Of a stretch of DNA of 64,000 nucleotides, positions 950 through 37,000 are shown in pieces. Both the position numbers and the translations under genes were made by a program. The DNA is from Chrysoperla carnea (lineage: Eukaryota > Arthropoda > Insecta > Neuroptera > Chrysopidae). The notes below the pieces were generated by a model. That model ran no database searches. It was not told the DNA's origin and saw only the letters and a list, made by a program, of their open reading frames with translations. Each line of letters begins with the position of its first letter. Position 1 is the stretch's first letter. Where the stretch lies: NCBI RefSeq assembly GCF_905475395.1, contig NC_058340.1, positions 67,372,181-67,436,180 on the forward strand, in the 5' to 3' direction.

Positions 950-1418
950 CGGATTTAATTTTAAGGAGCGAATTTATTTTAATAATGAATGATTATATTT
1001 TTTAAATATAATGTTAATTAATTTTTTTTATTAAAAAAAAATCTTTTTTTAATTTGCTGACGTTTTTATTCAAACCATAACATTGGATTCACAGATTATA
1101 CTTTTTAATTTAAAACAGATCTGCCACTCCCTGTAAAATTTTTACTATTTGCGTTCTCTGAAGGTGCTTTTCTCCAGGTGGCTCTGCACGTTATATTCGT
1201 TTAGGGCCATCTATTAGTTTTGATAATAATTTATCCATTTCAATGGTTGTTGGGGAAACAATATTTTATCGTTTTCAGTTCTTTTGCCTCCAATGGTACG
1301 TCGCAAACATTCTTAAATATTAAAAAAAGTAATTTACTTAAAATATAATTTTTTATTTACAATTTTTATACAAATCCAAATATTAACAAAAGAATTATAA
1401 CATTTTAAATTTTAAACC
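950..1418. other. Convergent intergenic spacer between SRBD1 and GSTCD
   Basis: This spacer is AT-rich and probably holds both 3' UTRs. The part from about 1110 to 1310 is less AT-rich than its flanks and includes a GCCATCTATT-type motif that recalls short transposon fragments elsewhere in the window, but I cannot assign it. No open frame or RNA gene is recognised. Confidence 0.4.
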
Positions 1419-3059
1419 CTAACAATTTTGATCATCAGGCCATCCAACCACTAAATTATTTTTCGGTGTACACGTATTCGGTTCTAACTTACCTAAACAC
1501 ACGGCATATTTAAATTCTTTGGCTTGAAACATTCGATCTGTATCAATAATATTCATACAAAGATTACCCTGTTTACTTTTCACATGTTCATCGCCATGAG
1601 TTTGATCCGCTGAATGTCCTAATACTAGATAATCTTTCAGTGTTAAACCGGATTCTCGAAAAATACGACTTCGGGGATACGTTAAATGATGACAATCATG
1701 TACACCTCCATAACAGCAAGGACAACAAACAAACGCAGCATTTCTTCGTAAACAGTGCTGTATTACAAGATCCGTTGCAACACCACACGCATGTAACGAT
1801 ACGCCAATATTAAAATCACCGCTAAAGTAATCTAAGTTACATTGTAGAAATTTTACATTTTCTAATTGTAATTTTTCTACTCGATCTTTAGCTCTTGATA
1901 AAGATTCTTCTTTGTTTTCTAATAAAATAATTAGACAATTCGGTAATTTCACAGCAAGAAGAATTCCTAAATGTCCACTTCCACTGCAAAAATCCACAAT
2001 GGTATCCTGTGCTTTTGCAAGTTTTATAACTGATTTAGCTAAATTTTCTAATTGTTCGCATTTTCTATCAGCACGAGAAACCGGTAACGCACCACCATTA
2101 GGATTTGCTTCGATTGGAATTGTATTCCAATCGAATTCAATTTCATGTCCAAAAGGTTTCCCTGGTGATTCTATAGATAATTTCGTGGCAATATTTAAAG
2201 CTTTATCGATATCATTTTGTTTGGTATAAATACGATTTTGTGGTTTATATCGTTTTGGATCAGCTTTATACAGACTTTCAGATTTAACGAACGGTTTTTC
2301 GAAATGTTTCGTACAAATATTTTTGGTTACTTTAAAAATCGAGATCGCTTTTTGAATTTGAGTGTTTTCCGATAGATTTTCATACCATTTATACGTTAAT
2401 GGAATTTCGGTTGAGAAATTAAATTTATTAAAAATTAGATATAATTGAGGCCATAATATTAAATCGGCTATGGTCATGAATGGTCCTTCAACGAATTTAT
2501 GTGATATATTTAACTCATTTTTTGGAGTTTGAAAAGTAATAGTTTTATTTTCGTTTTGAGCAATTTTATACATATTATGAATACGAACCGGTTGGCACAT
2601 ATGATTTTCTAATCGAATAATATCTTCTGGAATAATATTATTCAAATTTTGGTCACAAATAAGATAATTTGTTGTGGAAATCATATCAATTTCACAAAAT
2701 TTCGTCCATATCGATGTTTCATTCGGTGCTTTTAAACATGCACTTTTAAAACCTAATAAATCGATTTCGGATTGTGAATTTTTGATAATTTCACGATTTA
2801 CAGCACATAAACCTGCGATTATCGTATTTTTTGTATAAATACACGGCATTTCACATAAAACTGATGTTTCCGAAAATTCATAATCATTTATTTCAACACA
2901 ATGTTTAAAAGTTCTCGAATTCGAATCTTTAATTAAAATTTTTTTAATTTTAACATCTGTTAAATATTTACAGATAAATAACGTTATTAAAGATTCGAGA
3001 GGTACTTCGAAAAGGTTATCTCGAAGATGATCGTAATATTTGATATATAGTTCACACAT
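1419..3059 (-). CDS. GSTCD: Glutathione S-transferase C-terminal domain-containing protein (GSTCD), single exon
   Basis: One uninterrupted exon encodes 546 residues. The N-terminal half matches the diverged GST-like region (LLGFKSACLKAPNETSIWT; a later TIADLILWPQLYLI helix). The C-terminal half is a Rossmann methyltransferase fold with the SAM-binding VDFCSGSGHLGILLA, the acidic strand LLENKEESLSRAKDR, GVSLHACGVATD and a cysteine-rich CPCCYG motif, ending in the family tail PKNNLVVGWPD. Length is somewhat below the human protein because internal linkers are shorter. The biochemical role of the family is not firmly established; a methyltransferase-like activity is an inference from the fold. 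The start codon at 3057-3059 lies only five bases after the stop codon of JTB on the same strand, which leaves almost no room for an independent 5' UTR outside JTB sequence. Confidence 0.93.
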   Translation of the reverse strand: MCELYIKYYDHLRDNLFEVPLESLITLFICKYLTDVKIKKILIKDSNSRTFKHCVEINDYEFSETSVLCEMPCIYTKNTIIAGLCAVNREIIKNSQSEIDLLGFKSACLKAPNETSIWTKFCEIDMISTTNYLICDQNLNNIIPEDIIRLENHMCQPVRIHNMYKIAQNENKTITFQTPKNELNISHKFVEGPFMTIADLILWPQLYLIFNKFNFSTEIPLTYKWYENLSENTQIQKAISIFKVTKNICTKHFEKPFVKSESLYKADPKRYKPQNRIYTKQNDIDKALNIATKLSIESPGKPFGHEIEFDWNTIPIEANPNGGALPVSRADRKCEQLENLAKSVIKLAKAQDTIVDFCSGSGHLGILLAVKLPNCLIILLENKEESLSRAKDRVEKLQLENVKFLQCNLDYFSGDFNIGVSLHACGVATDLVIQHCLRRNAAFVCCPCCYGGVHDCHHLTYPRSRIFRESGLTLKDYLVLGHSADQTHGDEHVKSKQGNLCMNIIDTDRMFQAKEFKYAVCLGKLEPNTCTPKNNLVVGWPDDQNC

Positions 3060-3064
3060 TTTTT

Positions 3065-3595
3065 TTAAACACTATTCGCCAATTGTCGTTGAACACGCTG
3101 TAAAGCACGACGATCTAATGTTTTTCGTCGAATACGAACAAATAAGGTTGAAATTACAGATGCAAAAAACATTAATGCTTCAAAAGTCCAAAAGTTACGT
3201 TCATCTAACCATGCTACACGATCACAACTGCGGGTTACTGTTTCACCATTTGCACATTTTAAAACTTCCTTGAAGTGAGTATGAATGCATACACCTATGC
3301 TACGGCTAGCAATTTCAAATTCTGTACATGGATGGCAGTCGTTAATTACTTCATATTTCTGTGTGAGCCAACATGTAGAATTATTTTCTACAGCTGGGAA
3401 ATTTTTATAATGTCTGGGTCCAGTATCTGTCCAATTTGATTCCACTACAAGTACAAGTATGGTTAACCTAAAAAAAAAAGGTAATTAAAAATAAATAAAT
3501 ACAAATTTCGTATAATAAAAATAAAAGAAATGTACTAACGCTCCTAGGAGTGTAATTCCAAGCAGCATACGACTTTTAGGACACGATTCAATCAT
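3065..3595 (-). CDS. JTB: Protein JTB homolog (jumping translocation breakpoint), two exons
   Basis: Exons at 3595-3540 and 3467-3065 join with matching phase to give 152 residues. The N-terminus is hydrophobic (MLLGITLLGALTILVLVV) and looks like a signal peptide or anchor. The ectodomain keeps the family's cysteine pattern (STCWLTQKYEVINDCHPC, then RSCDRVAWLDERNFWTFE). A transmembrane helix follows (ALMFFASVISTLFV), with a short basic tail ending in LDRRALQRVQRQL, very like human JTB. JTB is a small type I membrane protein linked to mitochondria and cytokinesis in vertebrates; its insect role is not known to me. The start was chosen at 3593-3595 because it gives the signal segment after splicing. 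GSTCD follows on the same strand after five adenines. Confidence 0.88.
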
Positions 3596-3769
3596 TATTA
3601 TTGTTTTTAAAAAAGTGGTTTGAAGTTTAACATACCTTGCGCCTGTAATTTTTCATATGACATCTGGATTTAAAATATTTAACTATTTTGTATGTGACTC
3701 ATTTTTGCCATCACAAATGTCAACACGTCATTACGCGCTATTTTCAATTTTTGGGAAAATACAAGTTCT
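3596..3769. other. Presumed upstream region of JTB
   Basis: A short AT-rich stretch lies between the JTB start and repeat A. It should hold the promoter and 5' UTR of the JTB(-GSTCD) transcript. I see no clear TATA box or initiator that I would defend. Confidence 0.3.
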
Positions 3770-4367
3770 AAATAGATTCATGAAATTTAAATTTTGTTCA
3801 AATATTTTTCTTCCTTAACGTCCTTAACTTTAATGACTGGACATTTCAACGTAACTATTATTTTAGTAATTAATATCTTTTTAATTACTTAAAATTAATA
3901 AAAGTACAAATTCAGTGAGGGCATTTAAAAATTTCTAAAACGGAAATTCAAATTTTTATACGGACGTGACATCATAGTACGGGCTTGTCAAATTTGTTGA
4001 CATATTGTATGATATTAATTACTTACATTTTATATGATATTTCATTAAATTATACTATTCTACGACTTTTTATTAGAAAACTTAATAATAACGAGTGTAA
4101 ATTCTGTGTTGTAAATTCTCTTTTTTAAATGTAAATTATACATTGAACTGTCACCAATTGACAGATCACGTATTTATACGTCATCCACAGGGAGCGCCAA
4201 AAAACTGCGTTTAAATATCTCAAAATTATAATGTATTTTAAATATTTTTTTTACACTTAAATACAGCATTTTTAAGCAGTATTTATATTTTTTACTTTGT
4301 TATATCGGTGTAAACAATGAATTAAAAATTTAAAAAAAATTCATGAATATTCCCTATTGAATGAGAA
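3770..4367. mobile_element. Repeat A, copy 1: about 600-bp MITE-like element
   Basis: The same sequence recurs, inverted, at 52300-53746 in an intron of TUBGCP4. Both copies end in near-inverted termini: the right end here reads TTCATGAATATTCCCTATT, and the left end carries TTCATGAAATTTAAATTT after a worn AATAG. There is no coding potential. Size, AT-richness and inverted ends fit a non-autonomous DNA transposon; the superfamily is not determinable because no clean target-site duplication is visible. Confidence 0.65.
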
Positions 4368-4396
4368 AATGGATTAACATTAATGAAAAGCTATTT

Positions 4397-4500
4397 TTAA
4401 ATGCATATCATTTTATTATTATAGGGTTTCATGCCACTCCAAGCTAGATAACTTTCAAACAATCTCTTTAGAATTACCCGGCCGATTCGCTGGGTAATTT
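4397..4500 (-). pseudogene. Possible decayed copy of the last exon of the neighbouring GNAT gene
   Basis: Read on the minus strand, this stretch encodes LFESYLAWSGMKPYNNKM before a stop. The true GNAT gene just upstream ends LFEGLGF, six residues, YLCWVGMKPSKNKL. The shared LFE, YL.W.GMKP and N-K spacing is better than chance for so short a stretch, but a gap of several residues is needed. The sequence further upstream (4500-4640) shows no clear match. It could be a relic of a tandem duplication or a terminal exon of a paralog. Evidence is limited to this short alignment. Confidence 0.35.
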
Positions 4501-4836
4501 CAACTTTAAAAACAAAGAATATTGCGTTATAGCAAATAATACAGATCAAAATAAATTACAGCTCATTAAATTTGCCTAAACCATCTGTATTTCGGTAATA
4601 AATTATTATCGGACGATGCGTGAACGAACTTTTTTGTTTATTTTTACCCATAGAATACGGACCTGAAATAGTGTCGTCCAAATTTTGAAACATTTGTATA
4701 TATTTCTATAACTTTCCTTATTATACAAATTTCATTTTACAGTTTTTTAATCGAGAAATTTTTTATTTTTATGAAAGGTCATTAATTTTAGGATCAAAAA
4801 TGATTAAAAACATTACAATTACAATTTTTTTTAAAA

Positions 4837-5897
4837 TTATAGTTTATTTTTACTAGGTTTCATTCCAACCCAACATAAATAATCAACAATTTTGAATCCT
4901 AAACCTTCAAACAATGTCTCCGAAGGCGTATTACCTAATGTAATAAAACTTAAACTATCCATATTGTTTTCAGCAAACTTTTTACATAAAGCTTTTGTAA
5001 CTATCTTTGCGTAGCCTCTACGCTTATAATTTTCATCAGTTTGAAGTATTGCAAGTGATCCATAATCGTTTAGTAAAATCCATGCCATTAATGTCTTATC
5101 ATTTTGATCAAATATTCCAACTCCATTATTATATTTTATCATATTTTCAATATATTCGATTGGGCGATGGGCTTTAAAAGGCCATACACCGTGAATTTTT
5201 TTCGCATGTTCTACTGATAATGGACTGATAAATGTATTATCTGGGATTCTTAAAAAAAAAAGATATTTGAAAATTAGAATCAAAATTAAGTCTTTTTTAG
5301 CTCAATTACTCTAAGCAAATTTTTATGACTATAGTATTCGTGTTTTTAGAAATATACTTACTTAATTTCAAACTCTAAAGCTTTTTCTTTAGGAAGCCAC
5401 CAAAGTGCTGTCGTATCTAAATAATGAAAATGTAGTTTAAGTTCTTTTGCGAGATCAAATGCCACCGACAATTGATGTCTGTAATGTTTAAGTGTACAAA
5501 TTTCTTCATTCCAATTAATACGTTTTGTTTTACTTAATCCTTTGTAGAGACGTGCGTTTGTTTCGTCTAAAGTGTAGTAGTACACTATAGTTGCATTCCA
5601 GCCCTGTAATTTATACGAAAATCGATAAAAAATTTTATATGATTTGCAGTTAATATGTAGGTACAAATAAATTACCGGCTCTCTTGTAATAAAAATCAGA
5701 GTTGCATCGTCAAAATTTCCTTCCACACTATAAAATTTGGTATTTGCATTGTACTTTGTCATCCAAGTATGAGCCATCTCAATGTGGTAATAAGCCGAAC
5801 AATATTTAGGCCAATCTATTAGATATAAATCTCTCAATTCCAAGACTTTATCATTTTCTATTGGTCGTAAAATATCGTCCTTAAATTGATCTTCCAT
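4837..5897 (-). CDS. GNAT-family N-acyltransferase (insect glycine N-acyltransferase-like), three exons
   Basis: Exons 5897-5676, 5603-5362 and 5248-4837 give 291 residues. The architecture follows insect GLYAT-like proteins: an N-terminal half with the LRDLYLIDWPKYCSAYYHI start, and a C-terminal FR47-like GNAT domain. The latter includes a substrate-side segment SVEHAKKIHGVWPF, the beta strand LAILQTDENYKRRGYAKIV with the acyl-CoA-binding R-R-G-Y-A motif, and the end segment LFEGLGFKIVDYLCWVGMKP. It would transfer an acyl group from acyl-CoA to an amine; the substrate is unknown. The first intron (5604-5675) is 72 bases, free of stops and a multiple of three, so retention would add 24 residues. 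I treat it as an intron because it has good GTAATT and TTACAG ends and because the spliced product aligns without an insert. Confidence 0.85.
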
Positions 5898-12610: not shown

Positions 12611-15600
12611 ATGAGGATTATTTCTACGCTTCTATTTTGTGGTGAGTTATGCGAAATTCAAACAGTATCTATATCACTAGAATAAAAACAGTTAAAATCA
12701 CGTGTATCAACAGGGTCTATAAAAACCCTAAGAATTCCATAGAATATCTTAAAAGTTCTGGTAATCTCTAGTAGTTATTTACAATACTAGTGGGATAACA
12801 GTTTTATTAACGTAAGCCTGAGAAATTTGCACAACGAGTGCCTAGCACGAGTTGGATAGTCGTACAATTGCGTTAATAATGCGTTATCATACGTATATCG
12901 TACAAAACTTTATCTGGGAATCTAAAATGTGAAAATAAACGATAGTTATTATTTAAAAGTTGTCATGACTTCTTTGGAAAATAGAAAATTTAAAAAGTTT
13001 AACTAACAACAATTTTTAATAGTAACTTGTTGTTAGTTTACATTTTGACAGTAATTTGGAATATGGTAATGATCGTACTAGAGCGGGCGGTAATGAAATA
13101 TTTTCCCCACGCGTACTGAGTGAGAAAAGTACTTCTTATCTCTCGGGCGTAGATAAAATTTTTTTACGTTTAAATTTTGTTCTACCTATAAAGGTTTACA
13201 AGACCCAATTGACATATCTCGCTCATTTATGAACTCAAACTTACTTTTTACGTCCTTTTAAAAAGACGTAACGTTTTAAAGAGAACGTTTTAAAAATTTC
13301 AGCTTGATATCTCTTTTCGTTTTTCAGCTATCGTGTTGACGGAAAAACGAAAATGAACTAATTACCTAGATGATTTTATGAACACCTATACCAAAATTTT
13401 GTTAATAGCCTTAATATTTCTAAGCGTTACAAACTTGGAACTAAAATTAGTATACCTTGATATATATTTTATATAAAAAGAAATCATTTTTAATATAAAA
13501 AATATAAATTATAACTTTGACCTTTAAAAACTTTAAGTTAAATTACCTATCTAGTTATTTTTATTACAGCGTTATAAAGTAATTAATTTATTTGATTGCC
13601 GTTATATTAATTTCATAATGTTAAATATTATAATAAAACTTTCAATTTCTTTTGGGGAAGTAATTTAACACTAAGAATGTGGTATTTATCTTAAATGATA
13701 TTTCCACATTTTACTGCAATTAGATATAAAAGATAAGACAAGAGTTAGGTATACATTTAAATTGAAATAAAAACAAAACCCAAGTTTGTAATGCTTAGAA
13801 TCACTTGATTAGTGGCATAAAATCACTTGATCCATTCTCGTAATTCAGTCTGCTCGCCCGTCTTTGTGCACGATAACTACAACACGAAAATGGTTATCGA
13901 GCTAAAATTTTTTTAGCATGTTCAAGACATAAAAAGTGACTTTGAGTTTCTAAACGACCAATATAGATCAATTAGGCTCTTCAAAAAATCTTCCTTATGT
14001 AAAAATAACTTTTGTTTTAAACATTTTTTTTTTATTACATCAATTTTGTTTCAGTTGGATTTTGTTCTCAACGTTTATTTGTTGATTGCCAAGAAAGTCA
14101 AGGATACGCACAAAATATACCAGGAAATCAACTTGTATACTCGCCAGGGGGTGGGGGTAGTCAGTCAAGTGAAGTATATAACAGACCACAAATCACTTTC
14201 TCAGTTCAACCTACCGTTAATACACAGCAAGAACAAGTCCAGGTAGAGCACAGTCATGATCATAGCCATGGCGATGCTTATGATAATCCAAAAGCTTGGG
14301 ATATAAGAGATTCTGTGCCTGGTGAGCCAGGACAAGATTATCCAACACATTCTTTTGTACCACCAACTGAATTTAGTTGCGAAAATCGACCAAACGGTAA
14401 AAAAATAAATCAGTTTTTCTATGAAAAATAATTAAATCTTTGAATTTATTTTAGGATATTATGCTGATATCGAAACAGGCTGTCAAGCATTTCGAATATG
14501 TACAGGAACACCACAACCATTTTCATCGGTACTTTGTCCAAATGGATCATTATTTAATCAAGCAGTGTCGGCTTGTGATTGGTGGAATAATGTGAATTGT
14601 AAAGCATCGGAACGATATTATCCATCGAACGCTGTGATTGCACCGACATTATCTGTTTCAGTTATGTTAGAGAATGTACATAATATGATAATGGCACCCG
14701 TGTATGGTATTCCACAATACTATGATCATAATCAGAACTCAATCGAACCCCAGTATCCAGATGCTCAAGTTGCAGAAACTGCACAAGCCAATGAGTATTT
14801 ACCACCCAACCCAACTACACCATTACCGAGTGGATCACCACAGCCTCAAGCTCAACCAAGTATTACACCTCCTCCAGGACAATTTCTTCCACCTAGTGCA
14901 TCTCCAGCACCCGGTTATTTACCACCAGCGTCTGGATCACCAGCACCTAGTATACCAGCTCCTAGTATACCAGCACCTAGTGCACCAGCCCCTACTCAAT
15001 TTCTTCAACCAAGTTCATCTCCAGCATCCGAATATTTACCACCAGCGTCTGGATCACCAGCACCTAGTATACCAGCACCTAGTGCGCAAGCACCTGGTCC
15101 GACGCCTGGTTCCGTTACTGTATTGGGTTCTTCTTCTACCGCAGGATCACAAGCTTCTTCTACATCAGTAGGGGGTTCGTCTTCATCAAGTTCGTCCTCA
15201 TCAGGCTCATCATCTTCGGGGACAACAAGCGTAGACGTACAAGAAGCTGAAGAAATTGAATTTCAACCAGTCGATCCAGATGATTCTGCATTAGGAATTG
15301 GAGTAGGCGGAGGCGGGGGCGCAGGCTTCGGTGGTGGGTTTGGTTTTCAACCTAATATACAAATCAGTTTCCAAGGAGGAGGGGGCGGAGGAGGAGGCTA
15401 TAACTATCGTCGACCTTCATCGTCTCGGCCTAGTTCACGTCCTAGTAATTCAGGTTCACGTCCAAATGGTAGTTTTAAAACACCAAGACCTGTATCGCAA
15501 ATGTCATGGCCACCACGCCCAAGACCACAATCACAGGGACCATCTAGAGGTTATAACTACCCTTCTCCTTCGCAGCCACGGCCTCGACCACCGTCTCCTC

Positions 15601-17642
15601 CACAAAATAGACCTTCTCAGCAATCACAATCCTCTGGATATAATTATCCACAGCCTACACTGCAAAGACCGCAACCTACCCAACCAAGGCCACAGCCAAC
15701 ACAACCAAGACCACAGCCAACACAACCAAGACCACAGCCAACAGTACAGCAGCCACAACCAAGCCCTAGTGTACAGCCACAACAACCTTCATCAACGTCA
15801 GGCTATAATTACCAGCAACCTACACAAACCGGACCAGCTCCACAATCTAGCCCACAACCAACAATCCAACAACCTTCCCCTAGTCCCAGTGTACAACCAA
15901 CAATTCAACAGCCCTCTCCTAGTCCAAGCGTTCAACCACAACAACCTGCGACATCCACAGGGTATAATTACCAACAACCACAACCCACACAAGCACGCCC
16001 ACAACCTACACCTCAACAACCAAGTGTCCAGCCAACATTTCAACAACCCTCTCCTAGTCCAAGTGTTCAACCGCAACAACCTTCCTCCACAGGGTATAAT
16101 TACCAACAACCCCAACCTACACAAGCTCGTCCACAGCCAACACCTCAGCAACCAAGTGTCCAGCCAACGTTTCAACAACCCTCTCCTAGTCCAAGTGTTC
16201 AACCACAACAACCTTCTTCCACAGGGTATAATTACCAACAACCCCAACCTACACAAGCTCGTCCACAGCCTACACCTCAGCAACCAAGTGTCCAGCCAAC
16301 GTTTCAACAACCCTCTCCTAGTCCAAGTGTTCAACCGCAACAACCTTCCTCGACAGGATATAATTATCAACAACCCCAACCTACACAAGCTCGGCCACAG
16401 CCTACACCTCAGCAGCCAAGTGTCCAGCCAACGTTTCAACAACCCTCTCCTAGTCCAAGTGTTCAACCACAACAACCTTCCTCCACAGGGTATAATTACC
16501 AACAACCCCAACCTACACAAGCTCGTCCACAACCCACACCTCAGCAACCAAGTGTCCAGCCAACGTTTCAACAACCCTCTCCTAGTCCAAGTATTCAACC
16601 TCAACAACCTTCCTCCACAGGGTATAATTACCAACAACCCCAACCTACACAAGCTCGTCCACAACCCACACCACAGCAACCAAGTGTCCAGCCAACGTTT
16701 CAACAACCCTCTCCTAGTCCAAGTATTCAACCTCAACAACCTTCCTCCACATCCGGTTACAATTACCAACAGCCCTCAGCTCCATCATCACCACAACCTC
16801 AAGCACCTCAACCATCTACACCTAGGCCTAGTAGTACTTTCGCACCCAGTAGTACATCAGGACCCAGTAGTACTTCCGGACCCAGTAGTACTTCTGGACC
16901 TAGTAGTACTTCTGGACCAGCTGGCTACAATTATCCTAATCCTTCTACATCTTCTACCTCCGTTACTTCCATATATAGTTTTGGTTCCCCAGAACCATTT
17001 AAGGTCTCACTAAATACAGGCACCTCCCAATCACCAAATGTGCAAGTTTCGAATGCCGGATACCCATCATCGGGACCACCTGCATCAGGTTCATCTACAT
17101 TCGCACCTCCACTCTCCTCTGGTCCAACTCGGTTTGATGATTCTGGAAATAATGACATCAGCGGTGGTAGTTTTTCATCGAGTTCATCTGGCTCATCTTC
17201 ATCATCTTCTGGTTCATCTTCATCTTCGTCCTCGTCTTCATCCTCATCTAGTGGAGCTGTTTCTATAGATATTGTACCATCGTTATCTTTTGACTTTGAC
17301 TCAGATCAAGGAAAGCAGGAGTATGTAAATGCCGTTGTCGGTGGATTATTTAACGATCAATCATCGACAGATGGCGGTGCAGGAGACAAAGGAGATTATG
17401 ATCAAGAATTTTTAGACGCCAAATTTGATATTGGTGATATAAATGCTCTGGGAGCGTTAGGATCAGCTGGCTCTCCTACATCAACATTCGAAGGACCATC
17501 TTCGTATTTAGCACCACAAGGCTCAATTGAAGGTGATTTTGGTGGTGGAAACAGTTTTCAAGGATATTCACGACGTCGTTCATCGTCACGTTCAAAAGGT
17601 GGATCTCGATCTCGATCGTACAGTTATCAATCGTTTTGGTGA
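12611..17642 (+). CDS. Secreted single-ChtBD2 cuticular/peritrophin-type protein with Pro/Gln repeat domain
   Basis: Exons 12611-12641, 14055-14396 and 14455-17642 join in phase to 1,186 residues. Exon 1 plus the start of exon 2 encode a signal peptide (MRIISTLLFCVGFC). One chitin-binding type-2 domain (CBM14) follows at about residues 119-173, with six cysteines near 119, 134, 140, 152, 165 and 173 and the motif GYYADIETGCQAF, ending CDWWNNVNC. This is the CPAP1 layout (one ChtBD2). The long remainder is low complexity: Pro/Ser/Ala, serine runs, a glycine-rich block, repeated GYNY motifs, six 44-residue Pro/Gln units, then an acidic segment and an Arg/Ser-rich tail. It probably binds chitin in cuticle or an epithelial matrix. 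The short exon 1 is inferred from its signal peptide and phase, so an alternative first exon is possible. Confidence 0.87.
13001..13038. repeat. 12-bp perfect inverted repeat
   Basis: AACTAACAACAA at 13001-13012 pairs with TTGTTGTTAGTT at 13027-13038 across a 14-base loop, inside intron 1 of the chitin-binding gene. It is possibly a transposon end or chance. Confidence 0.5.
13155..13480 (+). mobile_element. Repeat C, worn partial copy
   Basis: This stretch matches parts of the better copies at 47419-47953 and 55977-56584, sharing GATATCTCTTTTCG, ACACCTATACCAAAATT and the GCGTTACAAACTT...ACTAAA tail. It lacks the first part of the element and is more diverged. It lies in intron 1 of the chitin-binding gene. 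Confidence 0.7.
15960..16751 (+). repeat. 132-bp coding minisatellite, six units
   Basis: Units start at 15960, 16092, 16224, 16356, 16488 and 16620, each exactly 132 bases and encoding a 44-residue unit that opens GYNYQQPQPTQARPQPTPQQ. Differences are mostly synonymous third positions, with an occasional V/I change. The exact spacing and low divergence point to recent unequal exchange or replication slippage with selection for frame. Confidence 0.95.
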
Positions 17643-34000: not shown

Positions 34001-37000
34001 ATTATACGAAACCATGATGACACGTCATTGTACAATGATTGTCGGACCAACCGGGGGTGGAAAAACAGTTGTAATCCAAACACTTTGTAATGCCCAAACT
34101 GCGTTAAATTTGCCAACAACATTAAGAATATTAAATCCAAAAGTAAGTTACCAAATTTCCAGTCAGAAATATATTTAACACGATTATTGGGTTTATCTTT
34201 CAGGCTTGTTCTGTAATAGAACTATATGGAGTTTTAGATCCAAAAACTCGAGATTGGACAGATGGTCTTCTATCAAATATATTTCGAGATGTTAACAAGC
34301 CTAATGAGAATGAGGAACGTATATATATTTTATTCGATGGTGATGTTGATGCGTTATGGATTGAGAATATGAATTCAGTTATGGATGATAATAAACTATT
34401 AACTTTGGCCAATGGAGAACGGGTTCGATTACAGCCATGGTCTGCTTTATTATTCGAAGTATGATTTTTTTTTTCGAAGTTTGATTCGAAGTATGGTTTT
34501 ATAAATTTTTTGATGCAGGTTGGTGATTTAAGTTATGCATCTCCCGCAACAGTATCCCGTGCCGGTATGGTGTATGTTGATCCAAAAAATTTAAATTATC
34601 GACCATATTGGCAACGTTGGCTAAACACACGTCCATATAAGCCAGAAAGAAAATTTTTTGATGGATTATATGAAAAATATGTTCCAATATCGTTAGATTA
34701 TATCACTTTAGGTATATTAGGTGTTCAAATGGTAGCACCATTAAAAACAATTATTCCACAAACCGGTTTAAATATGGTAATTCAACTTTGCAACATGATA
34801 AATGGCACTTTTCCACCGAAGGATACTTATCCAGAAAAAGAGGATGAATCGTTGGTAGACAAAGAGGCATGCGAAGCAGTATTTTTACAAGCAGTAATTT
34901 GTTCGCTAGGTGCTTCAATTTTGGAAGAATCAAAAGTTACATTTGATGCGTTTGCAAAAAAACAAAGTGGAATGATGGTTGCGCCGCAAGATACACCCGA
35001 TTCAAAAGCACCAATGAGTAAGTTTCTTGAAAAAACACAGAGTAAAATATGCGCTAATTTCGCTATATATTATTATTTTAGAAAATATTCCAGAAGGTTT
35101 TCCAACAATGTATGACTACTATTTAGATCTAGAACAAAGAGTATGGGTTGCATGGGAATGGCTTGTGCCAGAATATATTCATGATAAAACAGTAAATTTT
35201 GCCAATGTTCTTGTACCAACTGTAGATACATGTCGAACCACATGGCTCTTAAATTTAATGAATAGTATTCATCGACCCGTTGTGTTAGTGGGAGAAACTG
35301 GCACTTCAAAATCGGCGACAATCGATAGTTTTATCAAAAATTTGTTACAAGAAGGAAAAACGGTAAGTTAAAAACATTATCATTTTAAATATTCAAGAAC
35401 GATTATCCTTTCAACCAAATTTTGCACTCGATTTGAATCATATCTTGTATAAATCACTTAATCCGGATTAACAATTATAACAAGAGTATACAAAGGAGCA
35501 AAAACTTTGGTTGTCACTAATTTATTTCTCATCTTAATACTTAATTATTTCAGTTGGTTTTGAATATTAACATGTCATCAAGAACTTCATCATTGGACGT
35601 ACAAAGAAGTATTGAAGCGAGTGTTGAAAAACGTACAAAAGATGTTTATGGCCCACCAGTTGGAAAAACATTATTAGTATTTATAGACGATATGAACATG
35701 CCTCAAGTTGATGAATATGGTACCCAACAGCCAATTGCCTTATTAAAATTATTATTTGAACGTGGAGGTTTATATAATCGAGGCGGTGAATTGAATTGGA
35801 AAACGTTAAAAGATATAAGTAATGCACTTTTTTCTGTATTAAATAATATATCCGAACTCCCTTACTTGGACCTTAGGGGCAATTATGATACCTAAAGAAG
35901 TGATCGCCCCCACGAAAAGTCTGTAGTCTTCTATGTCGAATGACACACTCGATATTATTTAGCAAAATACCATTATCTTGTTTACAGACATCAGATAATT
36001 AATTCCATTCAATTTTATTTCAGGCTATTTTGCAGCTATGGGAAAAGCTGGAGGTGGTCGAAATGAAGTTGATCCTCGATTTATGTCAATGTTTTCGGTG
36101 TTCAACATAGTATTCCCTGCAGATGTAACAGTAAAACGGATTTACCTATCACTGTTAAGAGGGCATACAGATAATTTTAGTGATGATGTTAAAGCAACGC
36201 TGGATTCGCTTATGCTAATAACTTTGAATTTATATAAAGTACGTGATTTTTCGATTTTTCCAACTAGACTCTTTCTGCATTCATTCCTTTTAATTTTGTT
36301 CTTAAATATTTTAGATAATTATTGTCGAATTGCCACCAACTCCAAGCAAATTTCATTACATATTCAACCTCCGTGATTTATCAAGAATCGTGGGTGGAAT
36401 ATGTTTATCAACTCCGCCATATTTCCAATCAAGTAAACAGTTTATTCGATTATGGAGAAATGAGTTTACTCGAGTTATTTCTGATCGATTAATTAACAAA
36501 CATGTAGGTGTATTTTTTTGACAATATGCTCTTCCCCTACTCTTAATTTTTTTGGTTTGCTTTAGGATCAAGATTTAGTAAATAAACATGTACTCGAACA
36601 ATTAAAAAAAAATTTTGAAGCAGATGTCGCATATGTGATGCGAGATCCGTTATTATTTGGCGATTATCGAAATGCAACATCAGATGATCCACGATTTTAT
36701 GAAGACTTACTTGATTATGATGCAATCTTGTTTTTATTCAAAGAAATTCTGGATGAATATAACGATAGACGTACACGGATGGATTTAGTACTGTTCGAAG
36801 ATGCCTTAGAACATTTGACGCGGATTCATCGAGTACTTCGACAATATAAAGGGCATATGTTGATTGTTGGCGTTGGGGGAAGTGGAAAACAATCCTTAAC
36901 TCGTTTAGCATCATATCCTGCAGGTATAAACAAAATTAGAAATATTTTTAATGTATTAATTCGACATCAAAAAGGTTTCCTTTTACAGAATGTGAAATGT

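What the first reader, a model, noticed from the sequence alone, without database searches (positions are those of the whole stretch)
3040..3470. JTB stop and GSTCD start separated by five adenines: likely dicistronic message
On the minus strand the JTB TAA (3067-3065) is followed by five A and then the GSTCD ATG (3059-3057), so the junction reads TAAAAAAAATG. Both proteins are full-length, clearly recognisable and unrelated. There is no space for a poly(A) signal or promoter outside coding sequence. GSTCD is in the -1 frame relative to JTB across an eight-A run, so reinitiation after termination, a -1 shift on the A run, or an internal promoter inside the JTB exon are all open. A pair of independent genes this close on one strand is uncommon in insects.
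Basis: partly seen in the sequence, partly recalled or inferred. Interest (0 to 1): 0.72.

Follow-up and report, generated by a model that had tools for sequence, protein, structure and literature searches.

The report
JTB and GSTCD genes end-to-end
In what appears to be a green lacewing genome, two unrelated genes lie end to end on one strand with only five bases between the stop of the first and the start of the second, so they probably share one messenger RNA, an arrangement that is uncommon but well known in insects.

Summary
In detail: on the minus strand the JTB stop (3067-3065), five A and the GSTCD ATG (3059-3057) are as described. Both proteins are real and each search of the genome found one locus. 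The assembly matches Chrysoperla carnea inChrCarn1.1, chromosome 4.

A dicistronic message is the best reading. It rests on geometry, on a control in the same genome (MOCS2A-MOCS2B, bicistronic in Drosophila and human, 4-nt gap here) and on the FlyBase range for exclusively polycistronic loci, -34 to 319 nt. No transcript data could be reached, so it stays a prediction.

Reinitiation is most likely, though no viral-type 18S tether was found. A private GSTCD mRNA is not excluded: AATAAA at 2892 and a TATA-like site at 3409 lie inside coding sequence. Leaky scanning is unlikely.

A new pair of a known kind; moderate-low interest.

The parts
3540..3595 (-). JTB coding exon 1 (predicted start codon 3595-3593, start of the signal peptide)
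   Evidence: donor GC|GTTAGT is weak, chosen for frame and hydrophobic continuity
3468..3539 (-). predicted JTB intron, 72 nt, ends in TTTTTTTTTTAG
3065..3467 (-). JTB coding exon 2 with stop TAA 3067-3065; JTB domain
   Evidence: PF05439; PDB 2kjx match E=9.3e-4
3060..3064 (-). intercistronic spacer AAAAA (inside an eight-A run 3066-3059)
1419..3059 (-). GSTCD CDS, 546 aa, no intron; methyltransferase domain at residues 332-453
3072..3074 (-). TAG closing the GSTCD frame, four codons upstream of its ATG
1352..1357 (-). AATAAA 3' of the GSTCD stop: likely poly(A) signal of the shared or GSTCD transcript (inferred)
2887..2892 (-). AATAAA inside the GSTCD CDS, a possible JTB-only poly(A) signal; hexamer count at chance level
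3403..3409 (-). TATA-like site inside JTB exon 2 (one of five TATAWAW in 4836-3060; no chance control made)
3630..3638 (-). donor-like AAG|GTATGT upstream of the JTB ATG; if used it would splice out the JTB start
   Evidence: 3 in the window against 0.91 expected; 5 of 100 shuffles reach 3

Best explanation
JTB and GSTCD are one transcription unit. A promoter upstream of 3595 makes a capped mRNA that carries JTB and then GSTCD and is polyadenylated after the AATAAA at 1357 (inferred). JTB is translated first. Some ribosomes that terminate at the UAA at 3067 are not recycled; they move about 8 nt over the A run and reinitiate at the GSTCD AUG, which has A at -3 (inferred). GSTCD would then be made at a small fraction of the JTB level. 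Shown: positions, frames, protein families, one locus found for each, closure of the GSTCD frame upstream. Inferred: the shared mRNA (about 0.75) and coupled reinitiation as the main route to GSTCD (about 0.55 if the shared mRNA exists).
For: Gap of 5 nt with no room for a 3' or 5' UTR outside coding sequence. FlyBase: loci with only polycistronic transcripts have stop-to-start distances from -34 to 319 nt (PMC4528330, section 6 read). In the same genome MOCS2A and MOCS2B, bicistronic in Drosophila (PMC2276209; PMC5817353; passages) and human (title in a reference list seen), lie 4 nt apart (TAA AATA ATG). Leaky scanning is disfavoured: 11 ATGs in the JTB CDS counting its own start, 8 of them out of frame, against 9.68 expected from synonymous shuffles, so no depletion. 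The spacer is short for scanning reinitiation, which needs distance to regain initiator tRNA, and fits stop-restart or 80S movement by a few nt (PMC5972666, passages). The GSTCD AUG has -3A, the best base in four in vitro systems including Drosophila (PMC10853783, abstract passage).
Against: No transcript, TSS or ribosome data were available. The same review calls reinitiation after long ORFs 'presumably a very rare event'. No TGGGA in JTB exon 2. 18S pairing of the last 121 nt of JTB: longest Watson-Crick run 8 nt, reached by 93 of 100 shuffles; longest run with G-U 17 nt, reached by 3 of 100, but duplex energy is unremarkable (32 of 150 synonymous and 12 of 150 mononucleotide shuffles at least as good) and the 18S site is followed by its own complement. 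The MOCS2A tail shows no unusual pairing either (63 and 33 of 100). RNA fold z +0.53, 141 of 200 shuffles fold at least as well. Rfam over 1000-4800: 0 matches at E<=1. AATAAA at 2892 would permit a JTB-only mRNA and a TATA-like site lies at 3409.
Confidence: 0.45

Rival explanations
1. Separate mRNAs: GSTCD has its own promoter, or a splice form that removes the JTB start, so its ATG is read normally; JTB mRNAs end at a poly(A) signal inside the GSTCD CDS. The genes overlap as transcripts without a functional dicistron.
For: AATAAA at 2892, about 173 nt after the JTB stop, and ATTAAA at 2948 and 2933. A TATA-like site at 3409 inside JTB exon 2. Donor-like AAG|GTATGT ending its exon at 3636; joined to the weak acceptor AG at 3098 it would make the GSTCD ATG the first ATG after the junction. 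FlyBase: of 159 dicistronic loci 45 have monocistronic forms of both genes and 69 of one.
Against: Poly(A) hexamers in the CDS are not in excess (AATAAA 3 against 3.23, ATTAAA 2 against 4.21); the donor motif is near chance; acceptors inside JTB exon 2 have weak pyrimidine tracts (best 0.71, the 3098 one 0.59); no TCAKT initiator on this strand from 3835 to 3060. The TATA-like count (5 in 4836-3060) had no chance control.
Confidence: 0.3
2. Dicistronic mRNA with GSTCD translated by internal ribosome entry.
For: [quoted passage not shown]
Against: The junction folds no better than shuffles (z +0.53) and has no Rfam match; a 5-nt gap is not needed for an IRES.
Confidence: 0.12
3. Leaky scanning past JTB to GSTCD.
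For: GSTCD ATG has -3A; all 8 out-of-frame ATG ORFs inside the JTB CDS close before the junction.
Against: Ten ATGs to bypass after the JTB start, which itself has -3A; no ATG depletion (11 against 9.68).
Confidence: 0.05
4. Frameshift or polymerase slippage on the A run makes a JTB-GSTCD fusion.
For: Eight-A run and -1 relation.
Against: UAA is decoded before the run; slippage on A cannot remove the stop as long as two A remain; the GSTCD frame is open for only four codons upstream, closed by TAG 3074-3072; the JTB codons before the stop, AGT GTT, do not form a -1 slippery heptamer (from the sequence and general knowledge).
Confidence: 0.02
5. Assembly artefact.
For: Homopolymer at the junction.
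Against: Any A-run length of three or more keeps stop and start; both domains lie in intact frames on one contig; the matching published assembly used 40-fold PacBio.
Confidence: 0.01

Closest known systems
Drosophila dicistronic gene pairs (FlyBase, PMC4528330)
   Same: Two full-length ORFs on one strand, unrelated proteins, a gap inside the published -34 to 319 nt range for exclusively polycistronic loci.
   Different: Here no transcript evidence. JTB and the recalled fly gene numbers have 0 occurrences in that paper's main text; its full list (File S1) could not be opened.
MOCS2A-MOCS2B (in this genome at C2:45,599,387 onward)
   Same: Stop and start separated by 4 nt against 5 nt, both TAA, then an A-rich spacer, then ATG.
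   Different: Shift +1 instead of -1; the two products are subunits of one enzyme, JTB and GSTCD are not known to me to work together; MOCS2B appears to have an intron here (two MoaE pieces 3 kb apart).
Calicivirus and influenza B stop-restart (TURBS; PMC5972666 passages)
   Same: Stop and restart within a few nt after a long ORF.
   Different: No UGGGA motif and no convincing 18S tether found here; cellular gene.
Human CASQ2-type coupled reinitiation (Gould et al. 2014, as told in PMC5972666)
   Same: Cellular coupling without TURBS.
   Different: There the ORFs overlap and an Asp-rich C-terminus is needed; the JTB C-terminus here is Arg/Lys-rich.

Membership tests
gene with dicistronic mRNA (SO:0000722) | two distinct full-length ORFs in order on one strand | tested here: met
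   (JTB exon 1 is a prediction)
gene with dicistronic mRNA (SO:0000722) | stop-to-start distance in the published range (-34 to 319 nt) | tested here: met
   5 nt
gene with dicistronic mRNA (SO:0000722) | one processed mRNA spans both ORFs | not testable with these tools
   no RNA data
gene with dicistronic mRNA (SO:0000722) | both ORFs are translated from it | not testable with these tools
   no ribosome or protein data
TURBS-type termination-reinitiation | UGGGA motif 1 upstream of the stop-restart site | tested here: not met
   no TGGGA in 3467-3065
TURBS-type termination-reinitiation | pairing to the 18S rRNA (helix 26 loop) | tested here: inconclusive
   no unusual Watson-Crick run; one G-U-containing 17-nt run (3 of 100) not borne out by energy; helix 26 itself was not located
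JTB family | PF05439 domain over its cut-off | tested here: met
   147.7 bits, cut-off 22.1
GSTCD | C-terminal methyltransferase domain | tested here: met
   PF13679 57.5 bits, cut-off 27; NCBIfam methyltransferase hits all below their cut-offs
GSTCD | N-terminal degenerate GST-like fold | tested here: inconclusive
   no Pfam GST hit in residues 1-297, only a THAP hit below its cut-off; structure prediction unavailable

The most novel reading that the evidence does not exclude
GSTCD is made only by stop-restart reinitiation after the full 152-codon JTB ORF, across 5 nt and without a viral-type 18S tether: a natural animal example of reinitiation after a long ORF. An evolutionary add-on that the evidence also leaves open is that the intronless GSTCD is an old retrocopy that landed directly behind JTB and took over its promoter (no direct repeat of 14 nt or more flanks it; shorter target-site repeats were not looked for).
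Probability: 0.22. Interest if true: 0.55.

Novelty: new member of a known kind. Interest (0 to 1): 0.3.

Why it matters
If real, it adds a pair outside flies to the insect dicistrons. It also gives a compact natural substrate (a 5-nt spacer that keeps both stop and start at any A-run length of three or more) for asking how animal ribosomes reach a second long ORF. The MOCS2 pair, 4 nt apart in the same genome, is a ready comparison. For annotators it warns that JTB and GSTCD may be merged or cut wrongly.

Tried and rejected
-1 frameshift or slippage fusion: rejected from sequence. Leaky scanning: unlikely. Viral-type tether: no TGGGA. The 18S comparison was invalid (the motif was not found because the locus was in the other orientation); only its TGGGA count stands. 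One search used L008, a chromosome-3 copy with 500 N and 460 of 1650 same-offset identity to an array copy; its result (8 nt, 90 of 100; 12 nt with G-U, 78 of 100) was superseded, which used L010. L010 and L011 agree at 1650 of 1650 positions. Structured RNA: none seen. Retrocopy marks: no direct repeat of 14 nt or more with one copy at each end of GSTCD among the 7 families listed. Paralogues: none at E<=0.001. Solved structures: GSTCD matches only hemK methyltransferases weakly (8e-4). Literature, listings only: searches listed no paper on a JTB-GSTCD pair or on lacewing dicistrons (20, 20, 20, 10 and 15 rows shown of 251, 3,520, 16,492, 35 and 1,532 papers). Search 11 by a recalled fly gene number listed 7 of 7 papers, by title on human methylation or cancer, presumably probe names. 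Searches gave background (20 of 138, 6 of 6, 5 of 5 rows). Gene order in related insects could not be compared: the tool states that this genome has no relatives in the collection.

Full report
Where it is. The window is G000:C4:67372181-67436180 in a 559-Mb assembly of 337 contigs. The identification is by numbers, not by a name in the data; the total printed there is 560,248,701 against 559,487,470 here.

What is in the sequence. JTB has two predicted coding exons (3595-3540, 3467-3065; 72-nt intron) giving 152 aa with a hydrophobic N-terminus and PF05439 at 1.6e-43; its weak donor makes exon 1 the least certain part. Exon 2 alone matches the solved JTB structure 2kjx at 9.3e-4. GSTCD is one 546-aa ORF with Methyltransf_32 at 2e-15 and TRM13 at 2.2e-8. 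Its N-terminal 297 residues match no GST family, as may be expected from the degenerate GST part described for human GSTCD (PMC10452860, passages read). The name GSTCD thus rests on the methyltransferase domain and on recall. Each gene gave one locus in the own-genome search at E<=0.001.

How much is chance. With 12,985 protein-coding genes and an average gene length of 18,136 bp in 560 Mb the mean gap is of the order of 25 kb, so about one pair with a gap of 5 nt or less could arise by random placement alone (my arithmetic). But random placement leaves no room for UTRs, so the geometry still calls for a shared or overlapping transcript (inference). A direct control in the same genome is MOCS2: the ThiS-domain ORF (MOCS2A) and the MoaE-domain ORF (MOCS2B) lie on C2 with TAA AATA ATG, a 4-nt gap. 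That locus is described as bicistronic in Drosophila (PMC2276209; PMC5817353; passages read). So the geometry is that of a known class.

What the frames allow. The UAA is read before the A run, so neither a ribosomal -1 shift on the run nor transcript slippage can skip it. The GSTCD frame is open only four codons upstream, up to TAG 3074-3072. A fusion protein is therefore very unlikely. The same logic answers the worry about an assembly error in the run: three or more A leave both codons intact.

How GSTCD could be translated. Eleven ATGs occur in the JTB CDS (its own start, two more in frame, eight out of frame), against 9.68 expected from 1000 synonymous shuffles, 281 of which reach 11: no sign of selection for leaky scanning. 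MOCS2A is no different (5 against 5.00). A search for a viral-type tether gave no TGGGA in JTB exon 2. The last 121 nt of JTB against an array-type 18S gave a longest Watson-Crick run of 8 (93 of 100 shuffles reach it) and a longest run with G-U of 17 (3 of 100); the MOCS2A tail gave 9 (63 of 100) and 14 (33 of 100). Duplex energy for the JTB tail did not stand out (32 of 150 synonymous, 12 of 150 mononucleotide shuffles). The 17-nt run pairs with an 18S stretch that is followed by its own complement (sequence printed), so it is probably inaccessible (inference); the 3-of-100 result is one of several tests. The junction region folds no better than shuffles (z +0.53, 141 of 200). A review of reinitiation, of which I read passages (PMC5972666), calls reinitiation after long ORFs presumably very rare, reports five human transcripts that couple without TURBS, one with the downstream product about 82-fold lower, and describes 80S ribosomes moving a few nt on calicivirus mRNAs in vitro. 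A 5-nt gap fits that better than scanning reinitiation, which needs distance.

The rival that remains. AATAAA at 2892 or ATTAAA at 2948 and 2933, all inside GSTCD, could end JTB mRNAs; but the hexamers in the GSTCD CDS are not in excess (AATAAA 3 against 3.23; ATTAAA 2 against 4.21). A TATA-like site at 3409 lies inside JTB exon 2, one of five in 4836-3060, for which I made no chance control; no TCAKT initiator lies on this strand from 3835 to 3060. A donor-like AAG|GTATGT at 3636 would remove the JTB start if used; such sites are only mildly over-represented in the window (3 against 0.91; 5 of 100 shuffles reach 3). FlyBase reports that 45 of 159 dicistronic loci are exclusively dicistronic, 45 have monocistronic forms of both genes and 69 of one (section 6 of PMC4528330 read). 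A mixed picture is thus quite possible here.

Verdict. Observation right; interpretation plausible and the best available. It is a new pair of a known kind, not a new kind. Whether this pair is in print I could not tell beyond the searches named under Tried and rejected; the FlyBase list (File S1) was not readable here.

Noticed in passing
C2:45599387-45599879 of the same genome (L004): MOCS2A and MOCS2B are separated by 4 nt (TAA AATA ATG): a second very tight pair, in a locus described as bicistronic in flies and humans.
   Followed up: yes
many small contigs, e.g. C96, C115: A 23-base 18S pattern occurs 165 times (63 forward, 102 reverse; only the first places are listed), on several small contigs about 13.76 kb apart. 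The rDNA array may be the very large X-associated repeat that the genome paper links to its many unlocalised scaffolds.
   Followed up: partly
C3:14419902/14423649, 79959020/79962771, 79976776/79980527: 18S pattern copies on chromosome 3 come in pairs about 3.75 kb apart; one of them (L008) has 460 of 1650 same-offset identity to an array copy and 500 N in the locus.
   Followed up: no
4837-5897, minus strand: Two ORFs (DUF5645 and FR47-type acetyltransferase) that look like exons of one glycine N-acyltransferase-like gene (label recalled), the nearest recognised gene upstream of JTB on the same strand.
   Followed up: no
14664-17642, plus strand: 992-aa single-exon ORF rich in P, Q and S with repeated GYNYQQPQPTQARPQPTPQQP units, no Pfam match at 0.001; a 515-aa ORF overlaps it in another frame.
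   Followed up: no
34513-35115, plus strand: Dynein heavy chain exon (Dynein_AAA_lid, 3.4e-12).
   Followed up: no
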